Origin: a virus
DNA length: 64,000 nt
Direction: 5' to 3' (one strand)
IMG/VR virus record: IMGVR_UViG_3300050011_000061
Location: 1-64,000 of that record
This document shows, in pieces, positions 6,803 through 43,819 of this stretch. Each line of letters begins with the position of its first letter. Position 1 is the stretch's first letter. Both the position numbers and the translations under genes were made by a program. The notes beneath the pieces were generated by a model, which saw nothing but the letters and a program-made list of their open reading frames with translations, was not told the origin of the DNA and did no database searches.

Positions 6803-7527
6803 TACGATCCCTCCTTCGGAGCGCACGCGCTCTTCGCCAAACCGCCCAACCCCACCTTATCGAAGTCTGCCCAAGTCGAAGTTAGCCAAGTTCGCACGTA
6901 GCCGCGCAGCATGCGCGACTGACCGGCGTCGCGGCAGAAGTCGGTAAAGCCGACGCCGAGCTTGTCGACAGTCTCACACGCCCGCTCGGCCAAGTGCGGC
7001 ACTACCACGGTCTGCGGCTCCATTTGGGCTAACACCGCGGCGAACTTGCTGTCAGCGCCGTCCCATTCGAAGTAACCGCCGGCGACATCGCTGATGTGGT
7101 TCTTTACCAGAATGTGCCGCGAGCCACCACCGATCCTGGCGGCAGCCGCCGAAACCTCGCCTAGCGATTGAACGCTTGGTCCCAGCACATGCATCAGAAC
7201 CAGACCGACGGCGCCGGTTTGAACATCGTCCAACAAATGCGCCTGCTCTAGTGTGGCAAGGCTCTTGGACAGCATGCCGGCCCGCACGTCGATGACGGTG
7301 ACGCCGGAGGCGACGTCGAACATCTCCATCTGATCCTCGACGCGCGCCATATCGACGACCTTGGCTGACGGCACGAAGCGTGCCAGGCCGCCAGCCGGGT
7401 TCTCCGAGTCGAATGCCCTACCTGACACGCCAGTCGAGGCCAGATAGTCGATCAGCGACCGGGTAACGGTGGTCTTGCCGACGCCGCCCTTATCGGAGCC
7501 GACCATGATAATCAGAGGCACTGTCAT
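6802..7527 (-). CDS. ParA/MinD-like P-loop ATPase in the head operon
   Basis: A deviant Walker A motif, GSDKGGVGKTT, lies at the N-terminus, followed by TVIDVRAG (switch/Walker B-like region) and a C-terminal domain without recognisable DNA-binding elements. ParA-type ATPases form ATP-dependent sandwich dimers. The start is taken at ATG 7527 (MTVPLI), so the P-loop lies near the N-terminus as usual; GAGAG precedes it. An upstream in-frame start at 7590 would add 21 residues of low-complexity look. No ParB partner is adjacent. Its place between fibre genes and the protease suggests an assembly or packaging-related role, which is inference only. Confidence 0.7.
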   Translation of the reverse strand: MTVPLIIMVGSDKGGVGKTTVTRSLIDYLASTGVSGRAFDSENPAGGLARFVPSAKVVDMARVEDQMEMFDVASGVTVIDVRAGMLSKSLATLEQAHLLDDVQTGAVGLVLMHVLGPSVQSLGEVSAAAARIGGGSRHILVKNHISDVAGGYFEWDGADSKFAAVLAQMEPQTVVVPHLAERACETVDKLGVGFTDFCRDAGQSRMLRGYVRTWLTSTWADFDKVGLGGLAKSACAPKEGS

Positions 7528-12559: not shown

Positions 12560-13068
12560 TCTTTTACCTTGACGCTGCCAGGGTAGACCTCATCACGCGG
12601 GGTAACATGGATGCGTCGTAGCATGATCAGCAACTTGTCCTTGCCAACTGATATCTGATGGCCCAAGTCATAATCGCGCATGGCATAGATCTTTGGGTCT
12701 TTCTTCCGCAGCCGCTTCTTGAACGGTATCGGCGCGCCGATGGTAAGAGCGCGAAGCCTAACCGAGCTGAACGAACAGTTGGTAGCACCAGCAACCTTGG
12801 ACAGCCCTATTTCGCCGCGAGCACACTTGCGGATAAGTTCGTCGTCCTGCTCGGTGAAATATAGCCGACGACGACGCTGCGGAAACACCAACCCTATGCG
12901 CTTGGCATGGTAGGCGATGGTGGTCTTGGCCGCTTCAAGTCGGTAACAAGTCTCAGTGACCGTAAGGCCGTCGACTGCACACTGTATCAACTCGGGGTCG
13001 GTGAACTTACGCAGCTTTGAGTGTGATAGCACTTGTGCCAAGTGACGGCGTTCAGAGAAGATGGTCAC
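12556..13068 (-). CDS. HTH DNA-binding protein (two helix-turn-helix-like units)
   Basis: 170 residues from GTG 13068 (GTGA overlap with the head gene). The sequence suggests two homeodomain/HTH-like units: FTDPELIQCAVDGLTVTETC and FTEQDDELIRKCARGEIGLS, each followed by a basic recognition-like helix (RRRRLYF separates them). Many phage HTH proteins with 'D.ELI' units are regulators or intron-like endonuclease relatives; no HNH or GIY-YIG nuclease motif is seen. Its role in a late operon is unknown. Confidence 0.5.
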   Translation of the reverse strand: MTIFSERRHLAQVLSHSKLRKFTDPELIQCAVDGLTVTETCYRLEAAKTTIAYHAKRIGLVFPQRRRRLYFTEQDDELIRKCARGEIGLSKVAGATNCSFSSVRLRALTIGAPIPFKKRLRKKDPKIYAMRDYDLGHQISVGKDKLLIMLRRIHVTPRDEVYPGSVKVKE

Positions 13069-13883
13069 ATGTCAAGTCCCGGTATGACCGAACGCGACAC
13101 GCAACGGCAGTTTATCAATTCGCCAGGCAGGATAAATTTCCCCTCATCGGGGTCATACCAGCCTTCAGATATTTTATACCGCTTACCGTTGTTCTTGACG
13201 TGACTTGGCCTCGGCGTCTTGCCACCGTGCGAATGCATCCAAATAGCTTCGGTAATCTTCATTTCTTTTTGTCTGGCACGCTGCATGGCAGCAGTCGCCA
13301 AGTTGTTCTGGCTACGCGCTATAAGCGCGGCCCGCCGCTTAGTGACGCCTAATTGTTCTCGAAGCTCTTTAGCCAGTCCGCCAATATCGCGACCGGTCTG
13401 GACCGACCGCATCACCATGCCCTCAACTTGACTGAGGTATGTAGCTGGGATGCTCTTGATCAGTGCGACGTTCTGATGAATAGTGGCGTCGATGATGTCG
13501 CGCATTGCCGGCGTCATGGTAAAGCCCACCGCAAAGCCGCCCTTCCTCAAGGCCGATAAGAGAGCCGCATCGCTGCGCTGGCTGACGTCCTGCGCAAAGT
13601 AATGGGCCAGCTCAGTGGCGGCTTGGTCGAAGTTGTACATCCACTGACGCACCAGCTGCTGGACGGCGGCCTGTAGCTCGCTGGCAGGCGTTGCGTCTTG
13701 GGCCAATTCAGGTCGCAGTCGTTTGTACTGCTGCTCGATCCAGTGCTGGACTGAGACGCCCATCTTCTCAATCAGCTCAACCAGCCGACGCCGGTAGGCT
13801 ACCTCGAGGCCAATATTAGGGCGCACGGGGCGTAGCACCTTGTCAGTGCGATCGCGATCCTTGCGGTAGATGTAAGGGGCCAT
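13065..13883 (-). CDS. SPP1 gp7/Mu gpF-like head morphogenesis protein
   Basis: 272 residues from ATG 13883, chosen because it forms a TAATG overlap with the preceding gene; an in-frame TTG at 13901 is less likely. The C-terminal domain shows the family signature: ARSQNNLATAAMQRARQ, then IWMHSHGGKTPRPSHVKNNG, and GELINCRCVSRSVIPG. These minor head proteins bind near the portal and help DNA ejection or head assembly. The order portal, small membrane genes, gp7-like protein is consistent. Confidence 0.82.
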   Translation of the reverse strand: MAPYIYRKDRDRTDKVLRPVRPNIGLEVAYRRRLVELIEKMGVSVQHWIEQQYKRLRPELAQDATPASELQAAVQQLVRQWMYNFDQAATELAHYFAQDVSQRSDAALLSALRKGGFAVGFTMTPAMRDIIDATIHQNVALIKSIPATYLSQVEGMVMRSVQTGRDIGGLAKELREQLGVTKRRAALIARSQNNLATAAMQRARQKEMKITEAIWMHSHGGKTPRPSHVKNNGKRYKISEGWYDPDEGKFILPGELINCRCVSRSVIPGLDM

Positions 13884-14074
13884 TAGGACGCCAGCAGACA
13901 AGCTATTGCACTGATCACGATTATTGCAGCGAGAGACAACAAGCCATTATTATTGCGAATGACCCAAGGCACCGGTGGCAACATATCGTGGTACTCACGT
14001 CTCCTGGTGATCCTTACGAACAGGACCCCTTCGGCGGCAAGCGCGTCTCTTAGATGAACAGTGGTAAGGCTCAT
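13883..14074 (-). CDS. Small C-tail-anchored membrane protein (63 aa)
   Basis: ATG 14074 lies one base after the preceding TGA. The basic N-terminal half (RDALAAEGVLFVRITRRREY) is followed by one C-terminal hydrophobic helix (GLLSLAAIIVISAIACLLAS). It is coupled to the head morphogenesis gene by TAATG. Function unknown. Confidence 0.5.
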   Translation of the reverse strand: MSLTTVHLRDALAAEGVLFVRITRRREYHDMLPPVPWVIRNNNGLLSLAAIIVISAIACLLAS

Positions 14075-16284: not shown

Positions 16285-17670
16285 TTAAAACCGCGTCCTA
16301 CCGCGCATCGGCATCGAGGCGCGTTGTAGCATGCCGGCGGAGATGACCATGGGCGCGCGCACATGGCCACGATGCATCACGGCCAACGCCAGCGAACACA
16401 CACAGTCGTCGTGGAAACCTTCGGGAGCCGTATACCTTACGCCGGTCCTCGTATACTCGTACTCAAAGTCATCAAGTTCATTTCGAATTACCCCATCAGG
16501 GAAACTTATGCTGCCACTCTGGATGGCCACCGCCAAGCCTTCCATCAGTTGCTGCTTGGAGCCGGAGGTAAACTTGTAACCTTGGAACGAGGAACCTGGC
16601 ACCTTCTCCAGCATGCCGGCCCTGTCCTCGTAATTCTGCGGCGGGGCACCCGAGCGCTTCTGCAGCATCTCCACCACCGGATCACCAAGACCAGTACTGT
16701 CCACCAGTGCCGGCGTGCCGCCGGTTACTTTCTTGATGCGCTCAATGGCCTCGGGCCATGGCATCTGGAAGCGTTCAATACGGCACACCGCGCCGCTTCC
16801 ATCAAGCGCCGTACCAACGGTCCAGTCGACGCTCTTGCCCAAATCCCAACCCCAGACTTTGGGGGCACCGGCCGACATTGGCTTGACGCAGGCTGCTATC
16901 GCCGCCAGGCCAAATGGATTGCCACCGTCGTCGGATGGCTCTGCCAGATACAATTCACGAAAGACTTGTTCCGGTAGATCGCGTTTAGCTTCCGCAATTT
17001 CTTGGTCGGCAAGGACACCGGCAGCAACTGCGTCGGAGGCAACAATCTTGAAGTGAGCCATCCCCGGCTCACCGCTCTCCGCCTTGCGCGCCAAAGCATA
17101 GAACCAATTCTTGCGCCCTTTGACATTCCCAATAAAGCGAACAGGGCCACGAGTGGCAGTAATAGTAGAGCGGATCGCATGCCAGCTCTCCTCGCGCATA
17201 CGGGAGGCTTCGTCGAGCACTGCGGCGTAGACGTCTTCACCATATAGATTATCAGGCTTCTCGGCGCTCTTGAACCAAATCACCGTGCCGGAAACATTTA
17301 TCCGAAGAATCAAATCACCATCGTTGGAATGAAACGTGCCCTCGGGATAGGCGCGCTTCATACGGGTGTAGGCAATGTTGGCCTGAACGTAGACCGGCGC
17401 CACCCACCAATAGTTCTGCCCAGCTTTGCCGAACAGCGCCTGCTCAAACAACCATGCGATGCAGCCAACAGTCTTGCCGGTTTTGGTGGCGGCCTCAATT
17501 AAGCTGAAGCGCGCCAGCGCGCCGGAAGGATCGCGCGGGTAAAATATGGCATGCTCTTGCTTCGGATAAAGCCAGGGCCGCTCGTAGGTGACATCAACGA
17601 CGTCGCCATCAGCCGGTACGCTTGACGAAGGGGACGACGTCTCCTCGGTAGGCTGCTCGTTCAGCGTCAT
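16285..17670 (-). CDS. terL: Terminase large subunit (packaging ATPase/nuclease)
   Basis: 461 residues. Walker A-like EAATKTGKT lies at residues 59-67 and Walker B VLDEAS at 151-156. The C-terminal RNase H-like nuclease shows WGWDLGKSVDWT (first Asp), LVDSTGLGDPV (second) and EGFHDDCVCSLALA (third acidic cluster). It drives DNA into the prohead and cuts concatemers. It overlaps the small subunit gene by 62 bases in another frame. Confidence 0.9.
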   Translation of the reverse strand: MTLNEQPTEETSSPSSSVPADGDVVDVTYERPWLYPKQEHAIFYPRDPSGALARFSLIEAATKTGKTVGCIAWLFEQALFGKAGQNYWWVAPVYVQANIAYTRMKRAYPEGTFHSNDGDLILRINVSGTVIWFKSAEKPDNLYGEDVYAAVLDEASRMREESWHAIRSTITATRGPVRFIGNVKGRKNWFYALARKAESGEPGMAHFKIVASDAVAAGVLADQEIAEAKRDLPEQVFRELYLAEPSDDGGNPFGLAAIAACVKPMSAGAPKVWGWDLGKSVDWTVGTALDGSGAVCRIERFQMPWPEAIERIKKVTGGTPALVDSTGLGDPVVEMLQKRSGAPPQNYEDRAGMLEKVPGSSFQGYKFTSGSKQQLMEGLAVAIQSGSISFPDGVIRNELDDFEYEYTRTGVRYTAPEGFHDDCVCSLALAVMHRGHVRAPMVISAGMLQRASMPMRGRTRF

Positions 17671-18085
17671 CGGAGGCCGACTTCAATTCCATCTTGATGT
17701 GCGTGGTGGTAGAGTTCTTAGTAACAGTGATTGCTTGCAGCCGCGGGTTAGTGTACGGCGCAACATCGCGAGCGCAGTCCTGAGACTTCTCACGTGCGGC
17801 GATATAGTAGGCAGAAACCTTATTGAAATCCTTCAAGGCGTCTTCAAGCTCCTGCGCCTTCTCTGCCGGAAGCGAGTTGAGTTTTGCAATCAACGCTTCA
17901 TGCTGCTCGCCCAGCTTGTCGGCCTTGTCCTTCCAAAACAGCATGTTGTCGACCATCACCGACAAACCGTCAAAGCCTTGACGCACCAATTCGTTGGCGA
18001 GGCTACGCGTGAGCTTGGTTGCAGCGCCTTTGGGCCGCCCGCCCTTCTTGCCGTTCTCTCTGGATACTTCTGCTGGAATTGGCAC
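17609..18085 (-). CDS. terS: Putative terminase small subunit
   Basis: 158 residues. The N-terminal SRENGKKGGRPKGAATKLT is a common start of phage small terminases or their DNA-binding region. A long charged helical segment follows (LGEQHEALIAKLNSLPAEKA), as in the oligomerisation domain. Position just before and overlapping terL supports the call. It would recognise the packaging site. Confidence 0.65.
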   Translation of the reverse strand: MPIPAEVSRENGKKGGRPKGAATKLTRSLANELVRQGFDGLSVMVDNMLFWKDKADKLGEQHEALIAKLNSLPAEKAQELEDALKDFNKVSAYYIAAREKSQDCARDVAPYTNPRLQAITVTKNSTTTHIKMELKSASDDAERAAYRGDVVPFVKRTG

Positions 18086-18180
18086 GGTTAAAACCTGACT
18101 AAACTATTGATCCCATTGCCGCAGCATCGGCAGACAAGCTTGCGCTTTCCTGCTCCCCGGTCGACAACACTCATGCAGGC

Positions 18181-18654
18181 CTAAGCCGCGACGAGGTCGC
18201 CTATCTCAAACTTAATCGAGCGCTTGGCGCCAAGAATGCTGAACAACGCAGCCTCCCGCTCGCCGGGCAGCTCGCCGATGTAACTTCCAATTTTATCTGA
18301 TAACGGCCCGGTGGCCGGGCGTACTTGCTGGCCGGGTTGAAACCTCGGCGCCTTGAGCTGGATGAGAACCCCGTCCTTGTCGCAGCGGGCCTTCAACCTA
18401 ATGATCTCGCCTTCGTGCGCCGGCCCTATCACGTCGGCCACCCCCCGCATGTCGAAGATAACTTCCCAACCGGGGGATAACTTGATGGGCAAATAATTGA
18501 ACAGCAATGGATCGAGCCGGTGGACGCGCTTGCCGCGATGCCTGACCGTGCGTCTAACGCGCGGGAAGAAGTATTCGAACTGGGCTTTAAGAAGTTGTTC
18601 AATGACGTCTTCCTGTTGATGCCAGAACGTAACCGCGCAGGCCCAGCCGTGCAA
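18181..18654 (-). CDS. RfaH/NusG-like transcription antiterminator
   Basis: 157 residues. The N-terminal NGN domain runs from WACAVTFWHQQEDVIEQLLK through a basic segment (RVRRTVRHRGKRVHR) to DPLLFNYLPIKL and MRGVADVIG, matching RfaH positions 'PLFPNYLFV' and 'TRGV'. The C-terminal KOW-like domain begins FQPGQQVRPATGPLSDKIG. These proteins bind RNA polymerase and suppress pausing or termination. I start at TTG 18654: it has AAGGGG seven bases upstream and the NGN domain begins right there; an in-frame TTG at 18714 adds unrelated residues. As first gene of the head operon it may allow processive late transcription (inference). Confidence 0.75.
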   Translation of the reverse strand: MHGWACAVTFWHQQEDVIEQLLKAQFEYFFPRVRRTVRHRGKRVHRLDPLLFNYLPIKLSPGWEVIFDMRGVADVIGPAHEGEIIRLKARCDKDGVLIQLKAPRFQPGQQVRPATGPLSDKIGSYIGELPGEREAALFSILGAKRSIKFEIGDLVAA

Positions 18655-18684
18655 TTGAAAGCCCCTTCGGGTTGCTGGGGTCGG

Positions 18685-18714
18685 TTTATAATAGCACCGG
18701 CCGCAACAAAGCAA
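18685..18714 (-). promoter_or_regulatory. Putative promoter of the late leftward operon
   Basis: On the minus strand TTGCTT (18714-18709) is followed by TATTAT (15-bp spacing) or TATAAA (18-bp spacing, 18690-18685). The TTGCTTT box is the same as in the early cassettes of this window. It lies about 30 bases before the antiterminator TTG start. Confidence 0.35.
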
Positions 18715-18760
18715 GGGGGGAATTGCGAAGACCTACCCCTAGGTATGGGGGGTCGGCCAA

Positions 18761-19106
18761 AAACGTTTTAGGCATTTTAGGCATACCCCCCTTAAATATC
18801 CCCCCAAAAAGACCAGACAATGTTATTGTCCCTAAAATACCTATAATGTATATATATATTATAATATATAAGGAAATACAAGCAGTTAAGCCCATTTTTA
18901 TTGGCAAAACGTTTTAGGAGTCGCTATGCCTAAAACGATCGATTTAGGCAATGGGTTTTTGGATTTGCAGTACCTAAAACGTGGGAGGGGGAGCCGTTTA
19001 CCTTGTACGTCTCCCTAAAACGTCGGGCGGGGAAAAGCTATATATAGGGGGTAGTGGCAGGCTAAGGATTCGGGGATAAGGGGGCTTTAGCGATACCAAA
19101 ACGTTG
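18761..19106. promoter_or_regulatory. Intergenic control region with repeated CTAAAACG motif
   Basis: The non-coding stretch 18655-19086 lies between the primase-polymerase gene and the late operon. Copies of (C)CTAAAACG or its complement occur at about 18764-18772, 18910-18918, 18930-18937, 18973-18981, 19014-19022, with relaxed copies at 18775-18784, 18831-18839 and 19096-19104. An AT-only-like stretch (TATATATATTATAATATATA, about 18850-18870) lies in the middle. Clustered motif plus AT-rich DNA fits a replication origin or a multi-operator late switch; the sequence does not decide between them. Confidence 0.5.
18927..18950. promoter_or_regulatory. 24-bp near-perfect palindrome, candidate operator
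   Basis: TGCCTAAA at 18927-18934 and its exact reverse complement TTTAGGCA at 18943-18950 flank an 8-bp spacer that contains the palindrome CGATCG. Only one base pair (18935/18942) breaks the symmetry. Each half overlaps the repeated TAAAACG/TTTAGG motif of the region. A dimeric repressor or activator site is the simplest reading. Confidence 0.5.
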
Positions 19107-21240
19107 GCGGCCCCCCGCCTTCCGGTGTTTGGCGCTCGGCCTTTATGCTGCCGGCCACAATCAATTGCTCCAACGCTTCTTTTAAATCGCGCGACTTATA
19201 TTTGTATTTAAGCGCCTGTATCAGGTCGCTATGCCTAACCCGTTTAGAGCCATTGCTGAGCCGGCCGATGGTCCGCTTAATATCGTTGGCCATGGCTTGG
19301 TGCTCGCTATCGGCAATATAAAGCCCGGCGGAGACCACCAGCTTGTTGGCTGACCAGCGGGCAAATTCGCAGGCCCAGGTCATAACATCTATTTCAATGC
19401 AATCTGTGCCAAGCCCAACGGTAACAATAGTGGCCAACCGCATGGCAATCTCGGCGGTGCGGGCCATGAGGGAGCCAACATCCTCGTCCTGATCGTTTAG
19501 GTTTTGCAGCTCCTCGGCAAACCGGTTCCAATGGGTATCGGCTACGTCGGAAATAGCCAGGCTAACGTAGGAGGGCGAGGATGCCGATAGTTTGTTCATG
19601 GCCCCGCCCAAGCGGCCGTATATGGCCCGCAACCCATGCACAATGCCCTCCGGGGGCCGGGCCGGGTCCTGTTGGGGGGTTTGTTTGGCAGGGCGACCGG
19701 GGCTTTCAATAATAAGGAAGCGGTTGAGGATGCCGTTAACAATATCGGCACCCTCCAGGCTGGTGTAGAACTCGCCAGCGGTCGATGTGCCAAAGATGGA
19801 CATGGCTGGGCTTTCAATCTTGCGCGCCGGGAGCTGCGCCCACTCAGGCGTAGTCATAGTAGTAAAGCTGTTGCCCCACGCCATACGCAGAACCGAGGAC
19901 ACCGCGCCCTCAAAGCCAGAGGCCCGCTTGTTGTTGACCCGCTTTAGGAAGGCACCGAACTCGTCCATGGCACAGACCGACAAGGGTTCCCTGACCAAGA
20001 AGTTGATAACCGCCGGCATGCTAATAAATTGGCTAGGGCCAACGTGGGAACCCATGCCGGAGGCTTGGAGAATAGTGCCTATTTGGGAGAGCGGGTGGTT
20101 TTTGCCCGCCCCGGTACGGGCTATGCCAATAACGTACAGGTGGGTGCCTGAGCGTGTAGGGCCGGCTATGTGGCGCCCGGCAGCGGTGCCTACGATGGTC
20201 AAGGCAGCACCCAAGGAAAGAGCAGGCTGCGGATACATGGCGGTGTCACATATCCATTTGGCAATGGCACCGACCAGGCCGGGGACCTGGAAAGAAGGTG
20301 TAGGTGCTTCCTTGGGGTTGGAGGTTGGGGCCGGGGGAGCCGCCGCAAGCTGCGGCAGGTCGATAACAACACCGCTGGGCAGAGAGTCGGAGGGACCTTT
20401 TGGGTGTCCTATACCGTCTTGTAGGGCGCGCGCTATAGTGCCCTTGGGGCCTAGCGCCTTGTCGTAGGGCTTAATGCCCCAGGAAGAGGCCGCCTGCCAA
20501 AGTCTGGTGCGGGTAGTTGTAAGGTCAAGGCATTCCCCGCCAACCAGTTGGCCGGCGCGGAACGCCAAGGCGTTGGCTTGGTTGTTGCGCTCGCCTTGTG
20601 GGGTGTTCTTAAGTTCCTCGAGGATTTCATTGAACGCGGCCTCGCCATAAGCCTTAAGCCGATCGTCGGGAAGAAGGGCTATGGGTTGGGGAGCGGACTG
20701 TTGATGGGGCGATAATAGTTCAAGCAACCATGGCGGTGGGTCTTGGGCGTTGGTAAGCAGACCATGCAGAACGTAAGCCTGCATGGTGTCGGTAAAGATA
20801 GAACCCGGCCCTATAACAAAGCCGCCCATGCCGCGCACGTCAATACCACACTCGTGCTTGGGCGGCAGCCTACCGCGGGCATTGTTGTGCTCCGTTGGGT
20901 TGCGGTAGAACAAATGCCGGCCGCCGGACGGTGTATCGCTATAAGGAACGTTGAGTGGGTCATTGAATTGTTCAGCATAATGGGTGAGCCAGGCTAGACC
21001 GTCCGCTGGCTTCTTGTCGCAGTCGATAACCAGCAGATTACACTTGGCCAAGTCAATACCGGGCACCGCATCAGGGTGCTTCTGCCATAACCTGCTTATC
21101 TTGTCGGGATCGGTGGTTGAGACCGAACGCCAATAGACGCCCTTGTGCGGGGATTTCTTTGAGCCGCCTTCTTCCTGGCAAGGAAAAACATAGTAGCCCT
21201 GGGCTGCTAGCTGTAGAGCCGTCTGACGGTTAATGGACAC
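19087..21240 (-). CDS. Primase-polymerase (Prim-Pol) fused to a DUF3987-like ATPase/helicase
   Basis: 717 residues. The N-terminal Prim-Pol domain shows its three motifs: VIDCD (71-75), SGGRHLFY (105-112) and GIDVRG (132-137). The C-terminal part from about residue 330 is a P-loop ATPase with RTGAGKNHP (Walker A) and SVCAMDEFGAFL (Walker B), as in DUF3987-type helicases. The last ~70 residues look like a winged helix (RVRHSDLIQALKYKYKSRDL). It would prime and unwind DNA at the fork. GTG start at 21240; a repeat-bearing promoter region lies upstream. Confidence 0.82.
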   Translation of the reverse strand: MSINRQTALQLAAQGYYVFPCQEEGGSKKSPHKGVYWRSVSTTDPDKISRLWQKHPDAVPGIDLAKCNLLVIDCDKKPADGLAWLTHYAEQFNDPLNVPYSDTPSGGRHLFYRNPTEHNNARGRLPPKHECGIDVRGMGGFVIGPGSIFTDTMQAYVLHGLLTNAQDPPPWLLELLSPHQQSAPQPIALLPDDRLKAYGEAAFNEILEELKNTPQGERNNQANALAFRAGQLVGGECLDLTTTRTRLWQAASSWGIKPYDKALGPKGTIARALQDGIGHPKGPSDSLPSGVVIDLPQLAAAPPAPTSNPKEAPTPSFQVPGLVGAIAKWICDTAMYPQPALSLGAALTIVGTAAGRHIAGPTRSGTHLYVIGIARTGAGKNHPLSQIGTILQASGMGSHVGPSQFISMPAVINFLVREPLSVCAMDEFGAFLKRVNNKRASGFEGAVSSVLRMAWGNSFTTMTTPEWAQLPARKIESPAMSIFGTSTAGEFYTSLEGADIVNGILNRFLIIESPGRPAKQTPQQDPARPPEGIVHGLRAIYGRLGGAMNKLSASSPSYVSLAISDVADTHWNRFAEELQNLNDQDEDVGSLMARTAEIAMRLATIVTVGLGTDCIEIDVMTWACEFARWSANKLVVSAGLYIADSEHQAMANDIKRTIGRLSNGSKRVRHSDLIQALKYKYKSRDLKEALEQLIVAGSIKAERQTPEGGGPPTFWYR

Positions 21241-21512: not shown

Positions 21513-23117
21513 TCATTCGGCCGCTTCCTCTGTTATTTGTTCAAACCTTACGCCTACCACTCGAAAATATTTGCCATCGGGCTGCACGCAGATTTCTGTG
21601 GGTATCTTCAGCTCTTTAATGCGCGAAAGGGCTTCTGAAACTGTTGCGGGGATCGGCCGCTGTCCAGTCTTAAGCCACCATTGCTCGGCGCGTGATCTCA
21701 TTTGCCCTTGGTGCTGGAAGCCCAGCCATTCCTTGTGGGTGACAAAGCCGCAGGAGTATTCAACGCGAAGGGAATTGGGGGAGCCGGGCTTGGTGTGGAC
21801 GTAATACTTGACCGCGTCGACGTCGACCCATTGGGCTTTGCCTTTGGAGAGGATATTTGTGTTGGCATCGGCTACGGCTTCGTGCTTGGGCATTAGATCG
21901 CGCGGGAACAGATGTCCGCAGATAGGGCATTGCTGGGCAGCCAGCGCCAGGATGGTTTGGCACACAGGACAGGCCTTGGAGAGCGCTTCACCGTCGCCTT
22001 TGTTCTCGCCGGCCGACTTGGCCGTGATGGTATCGATAGGACCATGGCGTTCGGTATTGCGAGCGAAGTCGAGAACAAGGCAGTTATCCTTGCCGGGAGC
22101 GCGACGAAGCCCACGGCCTACTTGCTGGACGAACAGGCCGGCACTGGCCGTTGGCCTCAAGAGGGCAATAAGATCGGTGCCGGGGTGGTTAAAGCCGGTG
22201 CCCAGCACACCTACGCTAGTGAGGCACCTGATATCCCCCTGCGAGAACTGTCTGATAAAACTATCACGCTCGGCCTTGGGGGTTTCACCGGTAACCGTCT
22301 CGCAGCTAACGCCTTCGGCGCGGATAGCATCGCGCATGTGGCCGGCATGTTCGACACCAGAACAGAATGCTAACCAGCTTTTTCTCCCGGCGCCTAGCTG
22401 GGCAATCTCCTTGGCCGCCGACTTGGTGATCCAGTCCTTATCAACCGCCACCTCGAGCTGGCCGGGGATAAATTCACCACCGCGTTTTTGTACGCCGGAA
22501 ATGTCAAACTGGGTAAGAGTAGCTTTGCTAAGTAGGGGAGACAAATAGCCCTGTTCAATAAGGTCGGTCACCTTGGCTTCATAGACCACCTTGTCAAATA
22601 AGCGGCCTTTGCCGTAGTCGAGGCGGCCTGAGTCAAGGCGAAATGCTGTCGCCGTTGTACCTACCATTCGCATATCTGGGGTCTGGGCACGCAAAGCATT
22701 AATAAAGGCCCCGTACATGGTGGCCTGGTTGCGGCTGATGAGGTGGGCCTCGTCGATAAGAAGGATATCAAACCCACCTAACAGAGGAACCTTGTTGTAG
22801 ACCGACTGGATGCCGACCAACATGATTTGATGATGGCGATCGCGACGCCCGATGCCAGCGCTGTAGATACCGGCCGGGGCCTCCGGCCAAAGGGCAATGA
22901 GTTCTTTGTAGTTCTGGCTAATAAGTTCACGGACATGCGTGGCAATGGCAATGCGTAAGCTGGGGTAGCGGGCAAGAATCTCCTTGCAGATAGAAGCAAG
23001 GATCAATGACTTGCCAGAGCCGGTCGGCAACACAATGAGGCCATTGACACCGCCCTTGAGCCAATAGGTGTAAAGGGCATCAAGCGCTTGGCGTTGATAG
23101 GGGCGGGGATAGAGCAT
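21513..23117 (-). CDS. SF2 DEAH-type helicase with zinc-binding insert
   Basis: 534 residues. Motif I LPTGSGKS (30-37), motif II LLIDEAH, motif III VGTTATAFR, and motif VI QQVGRGLRRAPGK mark a complete two-RecA-domain superfamily 2 helicase of the UvrB/Res-like branch. After the helicase core (about residue 385) two CPxC pairs (CPVCQ and CPICG) form a zinc ribbon. The C-terminal ~100 residues are unassigned. It probably unwinds or remodels DNA during replication or recombination. Confidence 0.82.
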   Translation of the reverse strand: MLYPRPYQRQALDALYTYWLKGGVNGLIVLPTGSGKSLILASICKEILARYPSLRIAIATHVRELISQNYKELIALWPEAPAGIYSAGIGRRDRHHQIMLVGIQSVYNKVPLLGGFDILLIDEAHLISRNQATMYGAFINALRAQTPDMRMVGTTATAFRLDSGRLDYGKGRLFDKVVYEAKVTDLIEQGYLSPLLSKATLTQFDISGVQKRGGEFIPGQLEVAVDKDWITKSAAKEIAQLGAGRKSWLAFCSGVEHAGHMRDAIRAEGVSCETVTGETPKAERDSFIRQFSQGDIRCLTSVGVLGTGFNHPGTDLIALLRPTASAGLFVQQVGRGLRRAPGKDNCLVLDFARNTERHGPIDTITAKSAGENKGDGEALSKACPVCQTILALAAQQCPICGHLFPRDLMPKHEAVADANTNILSKGKAQWVDVDAVKYYVHTKPGSPNSLRVEYSCGFVTHKEWLGFQHQGQMRSRAEQWWLKTGQRPIPATVSEALSRIKELKIPTEICVQPDGKYFRVVGVRFEQITEEAAE

Positions 23118-30842: not shown

Positions 30843-31991
30843 CTATTTATCATCTTCTTTACAAGCATCTGCGGCCTTTTTGGGGTCGCCTTTTACGAAA
30901 ATATAGACATTTTGATGGGTCTTTCCAAGCTTGCGCCCAGCCTCAAACTGGCGGGTAATGCGGATAGGCAGCGATCCGATTGCGGTTATTAAAATTGCTT
31001 CATTGTAAAGTTTAAGCCCGGCTTGAACAAAGGCGTTGATTGTATCGCCAGGGAAATTGTAATAGCAGCCATCCTTGCCGCGCACATCACCCACCACAAT
31101 GGCCGCGAAGCGGTTGGGCTTTAATTTGGCGCAGGCGGCTTTGATGATTTCGCTGTAAACGGTTTGAAATTCCTTATAACCCAAATTAGATAAATCTTTC
31201 GGATCGTCCGAATAGACTTCAAGATCGGCGTATGGCGGGCAGGTAAAAACAAAGTCAACAGGTTCGGTGACCAAAGAAGCAACATTACGGCTGTCGTCAT
31301 TGTGCCAAATAGGTGGCGGCGTATCGGTACAAATTTGTTCGGCCTGTATGCGGTTAGCCTTCACTTGTGGGCTTGAAAGGTCAATGCCTATATATTTGTG
31401 CCCAAGTTTTGAGGCGACAATGCCACGCACTGAGCCGCCAGCAAACGGGTCTAGCACTACACCTTGCAGCGGGCAAAACCAGCGGTAAGCAAGTTCACAA
31501 ATGATGGGGTCGAAGATGGAGGTCCCCGACGTTTGCGTTTCTTCTCTCGTACCTTCTTTAACCCTGTAGTGATCAAAGTTGGCGGCAGCGCCGGTCCAAG
31601 TTAACCCGGACGGCGCTGCCGCTTTTTGTTTCATAATTTCCGTTAATCTATTTTGCGCTTTTTGGCTAAACAAAACAGCATCGCCTCCTTCTAAATTCTC
31701 GCCACGTCCCAACTCCGACTTAATCCCCAACTCCAGCCACGCCCGCTTGCGGTCCTGCCACCAACCTTCGCGAGCATTCAAAACAGTAAACGGCGGAAGC
31801 AAAAACTTTTCACCCAACGTGCTCGAATGCTTGCCTTCCGACAGCTCTTCAAACAACCCCACATGCGGGCTAAATTTGGTCATTTTACGCCCCCCCCTTA
31901 GTATTCTTTGGGAGACGTCATCTAATTGGCTTGGGTCCCGATTTCCTTTTACCCAAGTCAAATTACCAGGTTTTTTGACATCATCAGACAT
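30843..31991 (-). CDS. DNA N4/N6 methyltransferase
   Basis: 382 residues. The AdoMet-binding motif I VVLDPFAGGSVRG lies near residue 180 and the catalytic motif IV FTCPPYADLE near 240, with GHKYIGIDLSSPQVKANRIQ between. T/SPPY motifs belong to amino-methyltransferases acting on adenine N6 or cytosine N4. No restriction partner is adjacent, so protection of phage DNA or regulation is inferred. It overlaps the YkgJ-like gene by 8 bases. Confidence 0.8.
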   Translation of the reverse strand: MSDDVKKPGNLTWVKGNRDPSQLDDVSQRILRGGRKMTKFSPHVGLFEELSEGKHSSTLGEKFLLPPFTVLNAREGWWQDRKRAWLELGIKSELGRGENLEGGDAVLFSQKAQNRLTEIMKQKAAAPSGLTWTGAAANFDHYRVKEGTREETQTSGTSIFDPIICELAYRWFCPLQGVVLDPFAGGSVRGIVASKLGHKYIGIDLSSPQVKANRIQAEQICTDTPPPIWHNDDSRNVASLVTEPVDFVFTCPPYADLEVYSDDPKDLSNLGYKEFQTVYSEIIKAACAKLKPNRFAAIVVGDVRGKDGCYYNFPGDTINAFVQAGLKLYNEAILITAIGSLPIRITRQFEAGRKLGKTHQNVYIFVKGDPKKAADACKEDDK

Positions 31992-36813: not shown

Positions 36814-36966
36814 ATGATTGCACGGCCAATATGTCCTAGGTGCGGAAGCGCTATGAAGACGTCTAAACAAGTCAATAAGAATAACGGGTATGCCAGAACT
36901 CGTTTTAGGTGCAAGCGCAGCTCATGTCATTACGCCACAACCAATAAAACTAAGGTGCTGAGATAA
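36814..36966 (+). CDS. 50-aa Ogr/Delta-type zinc-finger protein
   Basis: ATG 36814; its TAA overlaps the radical SAM start (TAATG). Cysteines at 7, 10, 33 and 38 give C-x2-C-x22-C-x4-C, the exact spacing described for the Ogr/Delta late transcription activators of P2-like phages. Other parts are basic (KTSKQVNKNNGYARTRFRCK). Ogr proteins are ~72 residues, so this is shorter. A role in turning on late genes is inferred from the spacing alone; it could be another zinc ribbon. Confidence 0.55.
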   Translation: MIARPICPRCGSAMKTSKQVNKNNGYARTRFRCKRSSCHYATTNKTKVLR

Positions 36967-38486: not shown

Positions 38487-38665
38487 TCTTTCGGTTGCAA
38501 GGTTTCTTAGGTCTGCTGACGCTATTATTCATCGGTATGAAGCTGGCGCATCACATCGACTGGTCGTGGTGGTACGTGCTGGCCCCGGCTTGGGTGTTGC
38601 CGTTTATTGTCTTGGTCGCATTTGGTGTTTTGTACGCAGTTGCCGGAGCTAGTGGAAAGTCATGA
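38483..38665 (+). CDS. 60-aa two-helix membrane protein
   Basis: Overlaps the radical SAM stop (ATGA) and the next start. Two hydrophobic segments (FLGLLTLLFIGMKLAHHI and WVLPFIVLVAFGVLYAVAGA). It is co-translated with the sugar enzymes, so it may anchor or export; no family recognised. Confidence 0.5.
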   Translation: MIFRLQGFLGLLTLLFIGMKLAHHIDWSWWYVLAPAWVLPFIVLVAFGVLYAVAGASGKS

Positions 38666-40500
38666 TCAAACTCGCCGACTACGTCGTCAACACGCTTGCC
38701 GCCCACGGCATCGACCGAGCCTTCCTGGTGTACGGCTCGGCCAACGGCGACTTGGTCGACGCCTTCACGCGCACCAACGCCATCAGCTACGTCGCCACCA
38801 TGACCGAGCAGGCCGCGGGCTTTGCCGCCGAGGGCTACGCCAAGGTCAAGGGTGTGCCGGGGTTGGCCATGGCTACCTCCGGCCCCGGCGGTATGAACTT
38901 GGTCACCTGCGCCGGCAATGCGTTTTATGATTCCGTTCCCGTCATCTTCATCACTGGGCAGATCAAGACGCGTTTCCTGCGGCCCGACCCTTCCTTAAGG
39001 CAGATAGGTTTTCAAGAAGCCGACATGGTGGCGCTGTTTACGCCCGTGACCAAGTCCGCCGTCATGGTGGCCAACCCCAACCGCATCCGCTACGAGCTTG
39101 AGAAGGCGCTATTCTTGTGCAGTCACGGCCGCCCCGGACCTGTTTTATTGGATCTGCCGATTGACGTTCAGCAAGCCATGATCGACCCAGATGCGCTGGA
39201 AGGCTTCGACCTGCGCGCCGCTGAGAACCGCGAGCTGCTCAATGCCTCCGTGTCGCTGGCCGAAGTCGATCGCGACGTCGCCGACTTCGTGATCGACCTC
39301 GAGCAGAGCGAGCGGCCGGTGCTGCTAATCGGCGGCGGCGTTCGTTCGGCGGGGGCGGTCGACCGTTTCCGCGAGGTGGCCGCACTGCTTCAGATCCCGT
39401 GCTACCCCACTTGGAACGCGCTCGACGTCGTTACTTCCGACCTGCCGTGGTACGGCGGCCGCATTGGTACCTACGGCGGCGCCGGCCGCAACTTCGGCCT
39501 CCAAAATTCAGATCTTTTATTAGCGGTCGGCTCGCGCATATCAGGGAGGATAACAGGCGGGGCACCGGAGACCTGGGCGCGAGGCGCTAAGAAGTACCTA
39601 GTCGACATCGACTCGGCGTTGACGAGGCGCGAGCTGCAACAGGTGCCGTTTGACGTAAGTACGCGGGCCGACGTGCGGCTATACCTAGCGCGGTTGTCGT
39701 GTGCGTTGGAGGGCTACCGGCCGCGCCACGCCGACTGGCTCGATAAGTGCCTCGGTTGGCGCAGGCAGTACCCGGCGCGGCCAGCCAAGAAGGTAAGGGC
39801 TGGCTGCGACTTCTATACCTTCGTCGAAACGCTATCCGAAAAGTGCGGTCCAGAAACAATTCTGGTCGGCGACTGCGGCGGCAACATTGTGGTGCTGTCG
39901 CATGCCTTCGAGACCAAGCGCGGCCAGCGCTTCATTACCAACAATGGCAACAGCCCGATGGGCTTCTCGTTTGCCGGCGCACTGGGAGCCTGGTTCGCCG
40001 ACCCGACCAAGACTATCATCTGCGTCATCGGCGATGGCGGCTTTAATATGAACCTCCAGGAGATCCAGACGCTGATCAATTACGGCGCGGTGGTCAAGAC
40101 CATCATCCTTGATAATCGCATCTACGGCATCACCAAGGCGTTCCAGGAGACTAACTTCGAGGGTCGCGCCGAGGCCTGCGGGCCGAAGGGCTATAACCCG
40201 CCGGACTTCGAGAAGATCGCCAAGGCATACGGCATGGATGTGATCCGCATCGGCGGGCAGCACTCGGGTGCGTTGAAAGATATGGGCGCGGCGATCAACG
40301 TCCTGCTAGCGCATCCCAAGTCGATGATCTGCATCGTCGAGTGCTGGGACTACCACACCTACGAGCCGAGAATCGTCGGTTGGAAGACGCCGCTAGAGGA
40401 CATGTACCCGTATTTGCCGCGCGCCGAGTTTCGCAAGAACATGACCATCGAGCCGGTCGAAGGTTGGTTAGAGCCGACCATGCCAAATGTGGTGGGGTAG
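38662..40500 (+). CDS. ThDP-dependent enzyme, acetolactate synthase-like fold
   Basis: 612 residues with the three domains of the family. The PYR domain has the catalytic Glu (MTEQAAGFAAEGYAK, about residue 48) and GPGGMNLVTCAGNAF. The PP domain binds ThDP through GDGGFNMNLQE and the Asn ~27 residues later (IILDNRIYG). Relatives in polysaccharide loci, such as YerE, add a two-carbon unit from pyruvate to keto-sugars; others are acetolactate synthases. In this window the partner genes are sugar-nucleotide enzymes, which favours the former. The substrate is not visible in the sequence. Confidence 0.82.
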   Translation: MIKLADYVVNTLAAHGIDRAFLVYGSANGDLVDAFTRTNAISYVATMTEQAAGFAAEGYAKVKGVPGLAMATSGPGGMNLVTCAGNAFYDSVPVIFITGQIKTRFLRPDPSLRQIGFQEADMVALFTPVTKSAVMVANPNRIRYELEKALFLCSHGRPGPVLLDLPIDVQQAMIDPDALEGFDLRAAENRELLNASVSLAEVDRDVADFVIDLEQSERPVLLIGGGVRSAGAVDRFREVAALLQIPCYPTWNALDVVTSDLPWYGGRIGTYGGAGRNFGLQNSDLLLAVGSRISGRITGGAPETWARGAKKYLVDIDSALTRRELQQVPFDVSTRADVRLYLARLSCALEGYRPRHADWLDKCLGWRRQYPARPAKKVRAGCDFYTFVETLSEKCGPETILVGDCGGNIVVLSHAFETKRGQRFITNNGNSPMGFSFAGALGAWFADPTKTIICVIGDGGFNMNLQEIQTLINYGAVVKTIILDNRIYGITKAFQETNFEGRAEACGPKGYNPPDFEKIAKAYGMDVIRIGGQHSGALKDMGAAINVLLAHPKSMICIVECWDYHTYEPRIVGWKTPLEDMYPYLPRAEFRKNMTIEPVEGWLEPTMPNVVG

Positions 40501-40509
40501 GAGGTCTCC

Positions 40510-40887
40510 ATGAGCGTCTACCTAAGAAATCTTCTGATCATCGCGGTGACAGTCTTGGTCGCCTTGACGGGCATGTTCCTGACGGCAGGTCCCGTGGTTC
40601 CCGTGACGGCACAAGTCTCTGCAATGTCGCAAGGCGAAAGATTTTTGATATCGCAGAAGTTTGAGAGAGAACTTCAAACGTGCCTACTAACTCAAGGCCG
40701 AAGCGGCTCTTATTCCTCGCATGACGAGGATCTCGAATCCACTTTCATGTTGTTTGCCAGCGCCTGCCGGCCAGCGTGGAAGGTGTGGTGCTGGGACCAC
40801 CCGGAGTGGCCCGAGACCGGACGGGATAGCTGCATGATACGCGCAGCGTTCATGGCCCAAGATGCGCTTAGGCAAGTAGGGAAGTAA
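40510..40887 (+). CDS. Membrane-anchored or exported hypothetical protein (125 aa)
   Basis: AGGAGG precedes ATG 40510. The N-terminus holds a hydrophobic segment (LLIIAVTVLVALTGMFLTAG) that reads as a signal anchor or signal peptide. The rest has four cysteines (QTCLLTQGRSG, ACRPAWKVWCWDH, DSCMIR). No domain recognised. It interrupts the sugar genes. Confidence 0.55.
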   Translation: MSVYLRNLLIIAVTVLVALTGMFLTAGPVVPVTAQVSAMSQGERFLISQKFERELQTCLLTQGRSGSYSSHDEDLESTFMLFASACRPAWKVWCWDHPEWPETGRDSCMIRAAFMAQDALRQVGK

Positions 40888-40888
40888 A

Positions 40889-42019
40889 ATGACCGCTTAC
40901 AAATATCCCACGGCATTCAAGCACTGGTCGCATGAGGAGTACGACGCCATCAAACGCGTCGTGGCCTCCGACTGGCTGACCATGGGGTCGGAGACCGAGG
41001 CATTCGAGATCGAGCTGGCCGCCTACAACCAACGTAAGCACGCTATCTGCTGCAACTCGGGGTCGAGTGCCAACCTGCTGGCGGTGGCTGCGATGTATCT
41101 TGTCGGCAACGGTGGTTGGCGTCCGTACTCTTGCCTAGTGCCGGCGCTGGCGTGGGCGACTACTTACGCGCCGTTGGTACAGCATAACATCGACATGCAA
41201 TTGCTCGACTGTGACGACACCTGGAACGCCTGCAATTCTAATCTCTCGGCCACGGTGGAACCATACAACTTGTACGTCGCCTGTTCGATACTGGGAAACC
41301 CGTCGCAAAAACTGATCGACGCCGACAATGGTTTAGAGCGGGAAAAGTTTTTCTTCCTCAACGACAATTGCGAAGCTTTCGGCGCCGAAATCGACGGCCG
41401 CCCCACCGGCGCCTACGGCGACATGGCCACGCTTTCCTTCTTCCACTCACATCAACTCTCGGCAATAGAGGGCGGCTGCGTACTGACCGACGACGACGAG
41501 CTGGCGCGGCTGTGCCGCATCCTGCGCGACCACGGTGCTACACGGTCGGTTGAGAAAGCTAAGAAATTCGAAGACGAATATAATTTCGTTCTTTTTGGCT
41601 ACAACCTTCGCCCAGCCGAGATCAACATGGCGGTTGGCCGCGAACAGCTAAAGAAGATGGCGCTGTTCCGCACCGCGCGGCGACAGAACTGGTACCAGTT
41701 CAAGAAGCTGACCGAGGGGCTGCCGATAACAATGCCGCGGGAGAACGGGTTGATAAATCCGTTCGGGATACACTGGACCATGAACAACGAGAAGCAACGC
41801 GCCCCCTTGGTCCAGGCGTTCCGGGCCGCTGGCGTCGACTGCCGGCTACCCACCGGGGGCAGCTTTCATTTGCACGAGTACGGCAAGCCCTGGGCCGACC
41901 AGCTAACACCAAACGCCGACCGCATCCACCGCGCTGGCTTGTTCATTGGAAATGCGCCCTACCCCATCCCTGAGCTAATCGAACTGGCGGTCGGCGTCAT
42001 TGAGGAGGTACTGGAATGA
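40889..42019 (+). CDS. DegT/ColD-family PLP enzyme with catalytic Lys replaced by His (3-dehydratase-like)
   Basis: 376 residues, fold type I DegT/DnrJ/EryC1/StrS family. SDWLTMGSETEAFE, CCNSGSSANLLA and the PLP-ring Asp in FFLNDNCEAFGAEIDGR are in place. The active-site segment reads SFFHSHQLSAIEGG, where aminotransferases have SFxxxKxxxxGEGG: the Schiff-base Lys is His (H188). That change is the mark of ColD and E1/RfbH-type sugar 3-dehydratases. A role in making a 3-deoxy keto-sugar nucleotide is therefore likely. The catalytic assignment rests on this single, ungapped alignment. Confidence 0.8.
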   Translation: MTAYKYPTAFKHWSHEEYDAIKRVVASDWLTMGSETEAFEIELAAYNQRKHAICCNSGSSANLLAVAAMYLVGNGGWRPYSCLVPALAWATTYAPLVQHNIDMQLLDCDDTWNACNSNLSATVEPYNLYVACSILGNPSQKLIDADNGLEREKFFFLNDNCEAFGAEIDGRPTGAYGDMATLSFFHSHQLSAIEGGCVLTDDDELARLCRILRDHGATRSVEKAKKFEDEYNFVLFGYNLRPAEINMAVGREQLKKMALFRTARRQNWYQFKKLTEGLPITMPRENGLINPFGIHWTMNNEKQRAPLVQAFRAAGVDCRLPTGGSFHLHEYGKPWADQLTPNADRIHRAGLFIGNAPYPIPELIELAVGVIEEVLE

Positions 42020-42225
42020 TTGAATTTTGGTGTATTACAGAAACTAAAACCAACTATATTGGAGTAGCGTCTAGCCTTGAAGGCGTAATGTACATTTTTG
42101 CTAATGCAGATCCGGCTATGGTTCAATTGGTTTTGTGCGTTGACGTTCCAAGATGTATGTACGTTTCGTCTGTATATGAAGCACAGCAGTTTTTTAAGAA
42201 TCAACAGCTGGAAGGTGGGTCATGA
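42016..42225 (+). CDS. 69-aa hypothetical protein
   Basis: Coupled to the PLP enzyme gene by ATGA. MIEFWCITETKTNYIGVASS, LEGVMYIFANADPAMVQLVL; beta-rich, no motif. Low-GC relative to its neighbours (TTAAGAATCAACAG-type codons), a hint of separate origin. Confidence 0.5.
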   Translation: MIEFWCITETKTNYIGVASSLEGVMYIFANADPAMVQLVLCVDVPRCMYVSSVYEAQQFFKNQQLEGGS

Positions 42226-42344
42226 AAAACGCAGAGCGACTTATCTACTTCGTCAACCACTGCGTGGTGATCGTTGTTATGCTTGCGGTGGCTACCCTGG
42301 TCTTCGGCTTTCACATTGGCCATGTCGGATGGTGGTTCAGATGA
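42222..42344 (+). CDS. 40-aa membrane microprotein
   Basis: ATG 42222 and TGA 42342-42344 overlap the genes on both sides (ATGA each). One hydrophobic helix (VVIVVMLAVATLVFGFHIGH) with a positively charged N-terminus (KNAER). Confidence 0.45.
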   Translation: MKNAERLIYFVNHCVVIVVMLAVATLVFGFHIGHVGWWFR

Positions 42345-42541
42345 GCCCATTTCACATTCACAAGTACGAGACGATGCTAGAGATGGACGACTTCCATCTG
42401 ACGTGCCGCTGCGGCGACGAGTGCTCGTCCATAGCAGCCGCTCTTGGTATGACCGAGAGGTCCAAGGAGATGGTGGCCAACCGCATCGCCTGGCTGGCAT
42501 TAGCGATGACTGCCATCGGGCTGGTATGGGTGGTGGCATGA
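42341..42541 (+). CDS. 66-aa protein with CxC motif and C-terminal membrane helix
   Basis: ATG 42341 (ATGA overlap). MSPFHIHKYETMLEMDDFHL followed by TCRCGDECSS, then a C-terminal hydrophobic helix (RIAWLALAMTAIGLVWVVA). The TGA overlaps the SDR start (ATGA). Function unknown. Confidence 0.5.
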   Translation: MSPFHIHKYETMLEMDDFHLTCRCGDECSSIAAALGMTERSKEMVANRIAWLALAMTAIGLVWVVA

Positions 42542-43470: not shown

Positions 43471-43480
43471 GAGAACGAAA

Positions 43481-43819
43481 ATGGTATTTCACGTTGGGCA
43501 GAAGGTGGTGTGTGTGGATGCGGATGATACCTCAGCGCATGGGCGCAAGGAACTTAGCGAGGGATCGGTTTACACCGTGAGATGGGTTGGACAGAATGAC
43601 AGAAAGCACCCTGCGCGGCCAGAATTAAGCAACACGGTTGGCGTGCGTCTTATTGAAATCCCAATCCGATCGCATGGCGATAATCCATTTAGCGCGCTGC
43701 GCTTCCGCCCTCTTGTCTCCAAATCCACCGAAACCGGCATGGCAATCCTGCGCGAAATTCTTGATCGCGAGAACGTCGACGACAAAGTCTCTGACGTCAT
43801 TGAGATTGTATTTAAATGA
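43481..43819 (+). CDS. 112-aa hypothetical protein
   Basis: ATG 43481 with TAGGAG eight bases upstream; the long upstream in-frame extension overlaps the SDR gene and is rejected. MVFHVGQKVVCVDADDTSAH and GSVYTVRWVGQNDRKHPARP suggest a small beta barrel. Acidic C-terminus (LDRENVDDKVSDVIEI). No motif recognised. Confidence 0.5.
   Translation: MVFHVGQKVVCVDADDTSAHGRKELSEGSVYTVRWVGQNDRKHPARPELSNTVGVRLIEIPIRSHGDNPFSALRFRPLVSKSTETGMAILREILDRENVDDKVSDVIEIVFK

What the first reader, a model, noticed from the sequence alone, without database searches (positions are those of the whole stretch)
18181..18654. RfaH/NusG-like antiterminator as first gene of the late head operon, TTG start
The NGN signature 'PLLFNYL...MRGV' and a C-terminal KOW-like domain are seen. 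The gene precedes terminase and ~18 kb of leftward head genes. Long-operon antitermination by an RfaH paralogue is a known host strategy; a phage using its own at the late operon head would be a distinct late-switch design.
Basis: partly seen in the sequence, partly recalled or inferred. Interest (0 to 1): 0.65.

Follow-up and report, generated by a model that had tools for sequence, protein, structure and literature searches.

The report
RfaH-like factor at phage late junction
This phage carries its own RfaH-type protein, a factor that rides on RNA polymerase to carry it past stop signals, at the border between its DNA-copying genes and its virion genes; in related prophages the same gene is followed by an RfaH docking signal and then a built-in transcription stop, which looks like a late-gene switch of the lambda Q kind built from unrelated parts.

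Summary
ORF 18181-18654(-), TTG start with an AAGGGG Shine-Dalgarno, is a full-length NusG/RfaH-family protein (NGN above Pfam's cut-off, C-terminal KOW barrel, whole-length match to alphaproteobacterial RfaH paralogues). It lies between primase and the packaging/head genes.

The strongest evidence is in relatives. In Azospirillum prophages, homologues sit in the same slot, between replication genes and holin/terminase, with at least five different terminase families downstream. After the gene comes a leader: a covarying RNA hairpin, then TGCGG[C/T]AGC, which matches E. coli RfaH's ops (GGCGGTAGCGTG), then an intrinsic terminator 50-77 nt on, then late genes. A covariance model found a held-out copy behind a consensus promoter, and genome-wide hits occurred only beside these genes. 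Chromosomal alphaproteobacterial RfaH genes carry the same ops 47-101 nt after their stop (14 of 29; 0.2 expected).

The reading is an RfaH/ops module in phage lambda's Q slot. In the window phage itself, however, no ops or leader terminator was found, one key ops-contact residue is lost, and transcription is untested. Its late-operon antiterminator role is inferred from family and position. I found no description of this RfaH-ops-terminator late cassette.

The parts
18181..18654 (-). RfaH/NusG-family gene, TTG start, 157 aa
18421..18648 (-). NGN domain (residues ~3-78), including PLLFNYL...MRGV
   Evidence: Pfam PF02357 residues 7-78 above cut-off; alignment to RfaH
18187..18345 (-). KOW-type C-terminal domain (residues ~104-156)
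   Evidence: AF2 barrel and Foldseek to NusG CTD; alignment to RfaH CTDs
18662..18667 (-). Shine-Dalgarno AAGGGG for the TTG start
   Evidence: sequence
18655..19086 (-). noncoding region between primase and the RfaH-like gene: AT-rich tract, operator-like repeats, one promoter-like site
18757..19022 (.). cluster of CCTAAAACG / CGTTTTAGG half-sites, some paired as palindromes (5 exact copies)
   Evidence: 6 exact copies in 64 kb versus 0.40 expected
18861..18889 (-). promoter-like site TTAACT-17-TATTAT upstream of the gene
   Evidence: no better than the shuffle expectation for the region
18087..18173 (-). possible 28-aa ORF MSVVDRGAGKRKLVCRCCGNGINSLVRF filling the gap to the next gene
   Evidence: read directly from the sequence; not tested as coding
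17609..18085 (-). presumed terminase small subunit
   Evidence: position before TerL; only weak PHROG hits
16285..17670 (-). terminase large subunit
   Evidence: phrog_2 2.7e-32, PF03237
14432..16168 (-). portal protein
   Evidence: phrog_146 3.8e-101
13065..13901 (-). head morphogenesis protein
   Evidence: phrog_324 1.2e-79
19087..21240 (-). primase-polymerase/DUF3987, last replication gene before the junction
   Evidence: PF09250 3.8e-21, phrog_3022
21513..23117 (-). DNA helicase, homologous to the helicase upstream of the gene in Azospirillum prophages (29-32%)
   Evidence: phrog_16; blastp

Best explanation
The gene encodes a phage RfaH-family elongation factor that occupies the position held by Q in lambdoid phages. 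It most likely binds RNA polymerase early in the leftward late transcription unit through its NGN domain, displaces host NusG, and makes the enzyme resist pausing and termination, while its KOW domain couples transcription to ribosomes. In prophage relatives the loading point is visible: a promoter, an RNA hairpin that would pause polymerase, an ops-like TGCGG[C/T]AGC exposed in the non-template strand at that pause, and 50-77 nt later an intrinsic terminator that blocks holin, terminase and capsid genes unless the factor has loaded. In the window phage the loading signal is diverged, lies elsewhere, or is absent. Shown: family, full-length domain architecture, junction position, and the ops-terminator leader in relatives (sequence evidence). 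Inferred: antitermination activity, late timing, and the loading signal in this phage.
For: Family. IQ-TREE separates window, phage and chromosomal RfaH-like proteins plus E. coli RfaH from NusGs at 100/100. Position: primase, then gene, then TerL and portal in the window; the same slot in Azospirillum prophages with terminases of phrog_15, 9, 979, 38, a phrog_2-related type and others, in Mesorhizobium phage vB_MseS-P1 and, by position, in Bradyrhizobium phage ppBjS10J-1. Leader: hairpin, box and terminator in all 11 leaders collected; hairpin stem 100% paired with 3 of 6 pairs changed on both sides, 0/500 shuffles for paired cells and covariation score; held-out leader in L019, 49.8 bits, E 3e-9, behind TTGACA-18-TAATAT and before a holin homologue and TerL. 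In seven Azospirillum genomes (5.5-9.7 Mb) the 8 model hits all lie just after, or in one case 2.2 kb after, such a gene. A DNA pattern of the leader occurs in 7 of 2.9 million viral contigs, all of which carry the gene. The same ops follows 14 of 29 chromosomal alphaproteobacterial RfaH-like genes, 0.18 expected, mostly before polysaccharide genes.
Against: No match to the leader model or an ops matrix at the window junction or in the rest of the record. No intrinsic terminator between this gene and the next. The window protein is very divergent (end branch 3.85; its grouping with the phage set has only 84/25 support), and the Q24 of the ops pocket is A. Nothing shows when the gene is expressed or what it does.
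Confidence: 0.7

Rival explanations
1. The protein acts globally as a NusG substitute or Rho antagonist that reshapes host and phage transcription, and its place before the terminase is incidental.
For: No ops-like loading site was found in the window phage and the ops pocket is altered, so recruitment may not be sequence-specific.
Against: The slot is conserved across phages that share neither terminase nor host, and relatives carry an operon-specific loading site.
Confidence: 0.15
2. The late switch is made at the promoter: a phage regulator binds the CCTAAAACG operator-like cluster upstream of the gene, and the RfaH-like protein only adds processivity.
For: Five exact copies in about 260 bp against 0.4 expected in 64 kb, with palindromic pairing around an AT-rich promoter-like tract.
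Against: The repeats could equally be origin iterons next to the primase gene; no binding protein was identified. This would complement antitermination rather than exclude it.
Confidence: 0.2
3. The gene is a captured host capsule/exopolysaccharide RfaH that alters the cell surface (a moron) and does not serve late genes.
For: The closest chromosomal relatives stand before polysaccharide genes and reach 31% identity to the window protein.
Against: It is embedded between replication and packaging genes on their strand, and the ops of relatives stands in front of holin/terminase genes.
Confidence: 0.07

Closest known systems
RfaH of Escherichia coli and its ops element
   Same: NGN plus KOW domains; grouped with RfaH rather than NusG; relatives use GCGG[T/C]AGC with the C3:G8 mini-hairpin core of ops (ops described in PMC5995543; GGCGGTAG in PMC6775461).
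   Different: Phage-encoded next to phage late genes; below the RfaH equivalog cut-off; the window lacks a recognisable ops and Q24; relatives add an RNA hairpin directly before ops and an intrinsic terminator just after it.
Chromosomal RfaH-like genes of Alphaproteobacteria, mostly before polysaccharide genes
   Same: Nearest relatives by profile; 14 of 29 have an ops, typically ...CACCCGGAC|TGCGGTAGCGTG, 47-101 nt after their own stop.
   Different: They stand before sugar biosynthesis genes; in the downstream stretches printed I saw no terminator of the prophage type.
Lambda Q late antiterminator (Q, pR', tR')
   Same: Antiterminator gene between replication and lysis/packaging genes, followed in relatives by promoter, pause/loading site and terminator.
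   Different: Unrelated protein family. RfaH is expected to load on an ops pause in elongation, Q at a sigma-dependent promoter-proximal pause. The window phage shows no leader terminator.
PHROG phrog_6386 'transcription antiterminator'; NusG annotations in Mesorhizobium and Microcystis phages
   Same: Phage NusG-like proteins already catalogued; the window matches at 1.5e-4, an Azospirillum relative at 4e-23.
   Different: No leader, ops or late-switch mechanism is attached to the family in the sources available here.
LoaP, UpxY, TaA, ActX (specialised NusG paralogues)
   Same: Operon-specific NusG paralogues, some encoded within the operon they control (PMC7593976, PMC12691694).
   Different: UpxY model below its cut-off; these serve antibiotic, capsule or conjugation operons, not phage late genes.
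GafZ of the Caulobacter gene transfer agent
   Same: Antitermination of a phage-like capsid cluster in an alphaproteobacterium (PMC11150451).
   Different: GafZ works with host NusG; I found no sign in the passages read that it is a NusG paralogue.

Membership tests
NusG/Spt5 superfamily | NGN domain | tested here: met
   PF02357 23.5 bits vs cut-off 22.2; hhalign
NusG/Spt5 superfamily | C-terminal KOW domain | tested here: met
   AF2 barrel, Foldseek TM 0.71 to NusG CTDs; alignment
RfaH subgroup | Branches with RfaH-type paralogues, not housekeeping NusG | tested here: met
   100/100 split from NusG; long branch, so exact placement unsure
RfaH subgroup | Score over NCBIfam RfaH equivalog cut-off | tested here: not met
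   TIGR01955 30.8 vs 144.5 bits; so not filed as an RfaH equivalog
RfaH subgroup | ops element near the start of the target operon | tested here: not met
   No ops or leader match near the gene in the window; met in Azospirillum relatives
RfaH subgroup | ops-contact residues H20, R23, Q24, R73 | tested here: inconclusive
   Window has Q, K, A, R; Q24 is kept in the other phage and chromosomal RfaH-like proteins except L072
RfaH subgroup | Autoinhibition / fold-switching CTD | not testable with these tools
   AF2 predicts the barrel form, which does not exclude a second fold
RfaH subgroup | Antitermination activity | not testable with these tools
   needs an experiment
Lambda Q family | Sequence homology to Q antiterminators | tested here: not met
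   Only NusG/RfaH families matched
Lambda Q-type late switch (works like) | Gene between replication and lysis/packaging genes | tested here: met
   window; relatives
Lambda Q-type late switch (works like) | Late promoter with loading/pause element and promoter-proximal terminator | tested here: inconclusive
   Hairpin, ops and terminator in all relatives' leaders collected, consensus promoter clear in one; not found in the window
UpxY | Score over NCBIfam cut-off | tested here: not met
   NF033644 28.0 vs 100 bits

The most novel reading that the evidence does not exclude
Phages of Alphaproteobacteria repeatedly use an RfaH/ops module as their late switch: ops plus a promoter-proximal terminator makes late genes depend on the phage RfaH, an independent equivalent of lambda Q that stays in place while terminase modules are exchanged. 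The window phage is a far-diverged member that loads at an unknown, non-ops signal.
Probability: 0.5. Interest if true: 0.78.

Novelty: new variant of a known kind. Interest (0 to 1): 0.62.

Why it matters
RfaH is known for rescuing long surface, toxin and conjugation operons. A phage RfaH placed between a late promoter and an immediate intrinsic terminator would be a second solution to the late-switch problem solved by Q in lambda. It would test whether an RfaH-type factor can override intrinsic termination, and it offers ready cognate protein/leader pairs for reporter assays. It also suggests that phage genes annotated only as 'NusG' may be late regulators, and that alphaproteobacterial RfaH genes often carry their own ops directly downstream.

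Tried and rejected
(1) A window ops at 18124 (CTGCGGCA, 57 nt after the stop, the same offset as in relatives): the 8-mer alone has p about 0.01, but it scores -2.4 on the ops matrix (training 11.7-24.4), lacks G8/C9 and lies inside a possible 28-aa ORF. Rejected. (2) GACTGCGCTCGCGAT at 17779, second-best minus-strand matrix site: lies in the next gene and lacks G5. Not claimed. (3) Weak model match 18732-18654 just before the gene: 4.4 bits, E 0.95. Not claimed. (4) GCGGTAG is over-represented in the window (16 vs 8) but scattered over both strands and within genes. (5) GC skew gave no clear origin signal at the repeats. (6) tblastn of the window protein finds nothing in 50,697 phage records; relatives were reached through the shared KARCDKDG motif. 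(7) My first leader pattern had a spacing error and found nothing; corrected. (8) The first genome scan, confirmed against the divergent window protein, found nothing. (9) AF2 models have low overall confidence (pLDDT 56 and 59), so their whole-chain TM values (~0.3) are not used as evidence; only the C-terminal barrel is. (10) The gene in L065/L069 lies near a contig end, so the missing leader there says nothing.

Full report
WHAT IS THERE. The window is part of a 71,920-bp virus record of a tailed phage with baseplate and tail-fibre genes, a DNA polymerase, helicase, primase-polymerase, Sak4-type annealing protein and Cas4-type exonuclease. ORF 18181-18654(-) starts with TTG behind AAGGGG. 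It carries an NGN domain over Pfam's cut-off, matches RfaH and UpxY models below their cut-offs and PHROG phrog_6386 'transcription antiterminator'. Against a profile of 12 alphaproteobacterial RfaH paralogues it aligns from residue 3 to 156, 31% identity to the first of them, E 2.3e-14. AlphaFold models the C-terminal ~50 residues as a barrel (block pLDDT about 85-92) that superposes on NusG C-terminal domains (TM 0.71); the N-terminal half was poorly modelled, so its fold rests on sequence.

POSITION. On the minus strand the order is helicase, primase-polymerase, a 432-bp noncoding gap, this gene, a presumed small terminase, large terminase, portal, head morphogenesis protein and further head and tail genes. 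The gene thus stands where replication ends and virion genes begin. 'First gene of the late operon' fits but is not proven.

RELATIVES. A near-identical phage exists (99%). Other relatives came from Azospirillum prophages and viral contigs. There the homologue also follows replication genes (helicase, O-like or primosomal protein, primase) and precedes holin, terminase and portal. The large terminases downstream belong to different families (phrog_15, phrog_9, phrog_979, phrog_38, a phrog_2-related type, and a further type in L002), so the junction gene stays while packaging modules change. Among annotated phages, Mesorhizobium phage vB_MseS-P1 has replication initiation protein, NusG, HNH, TerS, TerL, portal. 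In Bradyrhizobium phage ppBjS10J-1 the gene is followed at about 1 kb by a probable terminase/portal run (annotated hypothetical; assigned by position only), with a strong hairpin-plus-T stretch in between.

THE LEADER IN RELATIVES. After the stop codon of the Azospirillum prophage genes comes a conserved noncoding leader: a hairpin whose 3' arm ends in AC, directly followed by TGCGG[C/T]AGC (TGCGGACGC in L072), and 50-77 nt later GGCGGGTTT(T) at the end of a G+C-rich stem. In a structural layout made by hand, all cells of the hairpin stem are paired, three of six pairs change on both sides, and no shuffle of 500 reaches the paired fraction or the covariation score. RNAalifold finds the same stem and the terminator on the unedited alignment. 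A covariance model built from 11 leaders found a twelfth that was not in its training set, in L019: 49.8 bits, E 3e-9, 2.2 kb after the gene and before a holin homologue, a phrog_9 terminase and a portal. It stands behind TTGACA-18-TAATAT, and its terminator stem has a different sequence (GCTCGC...GCGAGC then TTTTT). Over seven Azospirillum genomes the model hits eight places, all next to these genes. A DNA pattern of the leader occurs in seven of 2.9 million viral contigs, all of which carry the gene (one search compared).

THE BOX IS OPS-LIKE. E. coli RfaH loads at ops; the loop G4-A7 closed by C3:G8 in the non-template strand is read at G5 and T6 (PMC5995543), and the 8-bp form is GGCGGTAG (PMC6775461). 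Prophage boxes read GCGGTAGC or GCGGCAGC. The link was strengthened from outside the phages: of 29 chromosomal alphaproteobacterial RfaH-like genes, 14 have TGCGG[C/T]AG within 120 nt of their own stop, 0.18 expected from the rest of the same loci. Typical is TTTCACCCGGAC|TGCGGTAGCGTGG, and most stand before polysaccharide genes. The prophages thus appear to use a chromosomal RfaH/ops arrangement with an intrinsic terminator added behind it.

MECHANISM. Polymerase starting at the late promoter would pause when the hairpin forms about 10-12 nt behind the RNA end, the distance typical of hairpin pauses (general knowledge), with the ops-like box exposed on the non-template strand. The phage RfaH would load there, stay on the enzyme and carry it past the terminator into holin and packaging genes. 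Without it, transcription stops within the leader. This is what Q does in lambda, with unrelated parts. All of this is inferred from sequence.

THE WINDOW PHAGE IS DIFFERENT. The leader model gives nothing at the junction or in the remaining 8 kb of the record, the ops matrix finds nothing convincing near the gene, and no intrinsic terminator lies between this gene and the next. The protein lacks Q24, which nearly all relatives keep, but has K at 23 and keeps R73. In the tree it falls firmly on the RfaH side (100/100) and only loosely with the prophage group (84/25), on a very long branch. The gap before the gene holds a dense cluster of CCTAAAACG half-sites, which may bind a regulator or be an origin. 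So the claim for this phage is: RfaH-family factor in the late-switch slot, loading signal unknown.

NOVELTY. Phage NusG-like genes are catalogued (phrog_6386) and prophage RfaH genes are mentioned in passing (PMC7593976). Seven searches of an open-access library found no account of a phage RfaH/NusG paralogue as late antiterminator; subscription papers were not covered. I therefore rate it a new variant of a known kind.

Noticed in passing
18757-19022, plus one copy at 36901-36909: Cluster of CCTAAAACG/CGTTTTAGG half-sites, partly palindromic, around an AT-rich tract between primase and the RfaH-like gene; five exact copies here, a sixth just before the rightward gene at 36966.
   Followed up: partly
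18087-18173 (-): Possible 28-aa ORF with a CRCCG motif (MSVVDRGAGKRKLVCRCCGNGINSLVRF) fills the gap between the RfaH-like gene and the next gene.
   Followed up: no
L035-L063, e.g. L039 about 2055: Chromosomal alphaproteobacterial RfaH-like genes often carry an ops with a preceding hairpin 47-101 nt after their own stop codon (14 of 29), mostly before polysaccharide genes.
   Followed up: partly
L019:12694-12910: A complete promoter (TTGACA-18-TAATAT), GGCGGTAGG near the expected transcript start, hairpin, ops and a sequence-diverged terminator, 2.2 kb after the gene.
   Followed up: partly
L090 about 6836-6885 (Bradyrhizobium phage ppBjS10J-1): Strong terminator-like hairpin followed by ACTTTTATTT between a NusG-like gene annotated hypothetical and the downstream genes, without a recognisable ops.
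   Followed up: no
38662-44808 (+): Rightward block with aminotransferase and nucleotide-sugar epimerase matches and two large proteins of unknown PHROG families; possibly sugar or nucleotide modification.
   Followed up: no
30843-31991 (-): One ORF matching both a ParB-like nuclease family and DNA methyltransferase families.
   Followed up: no
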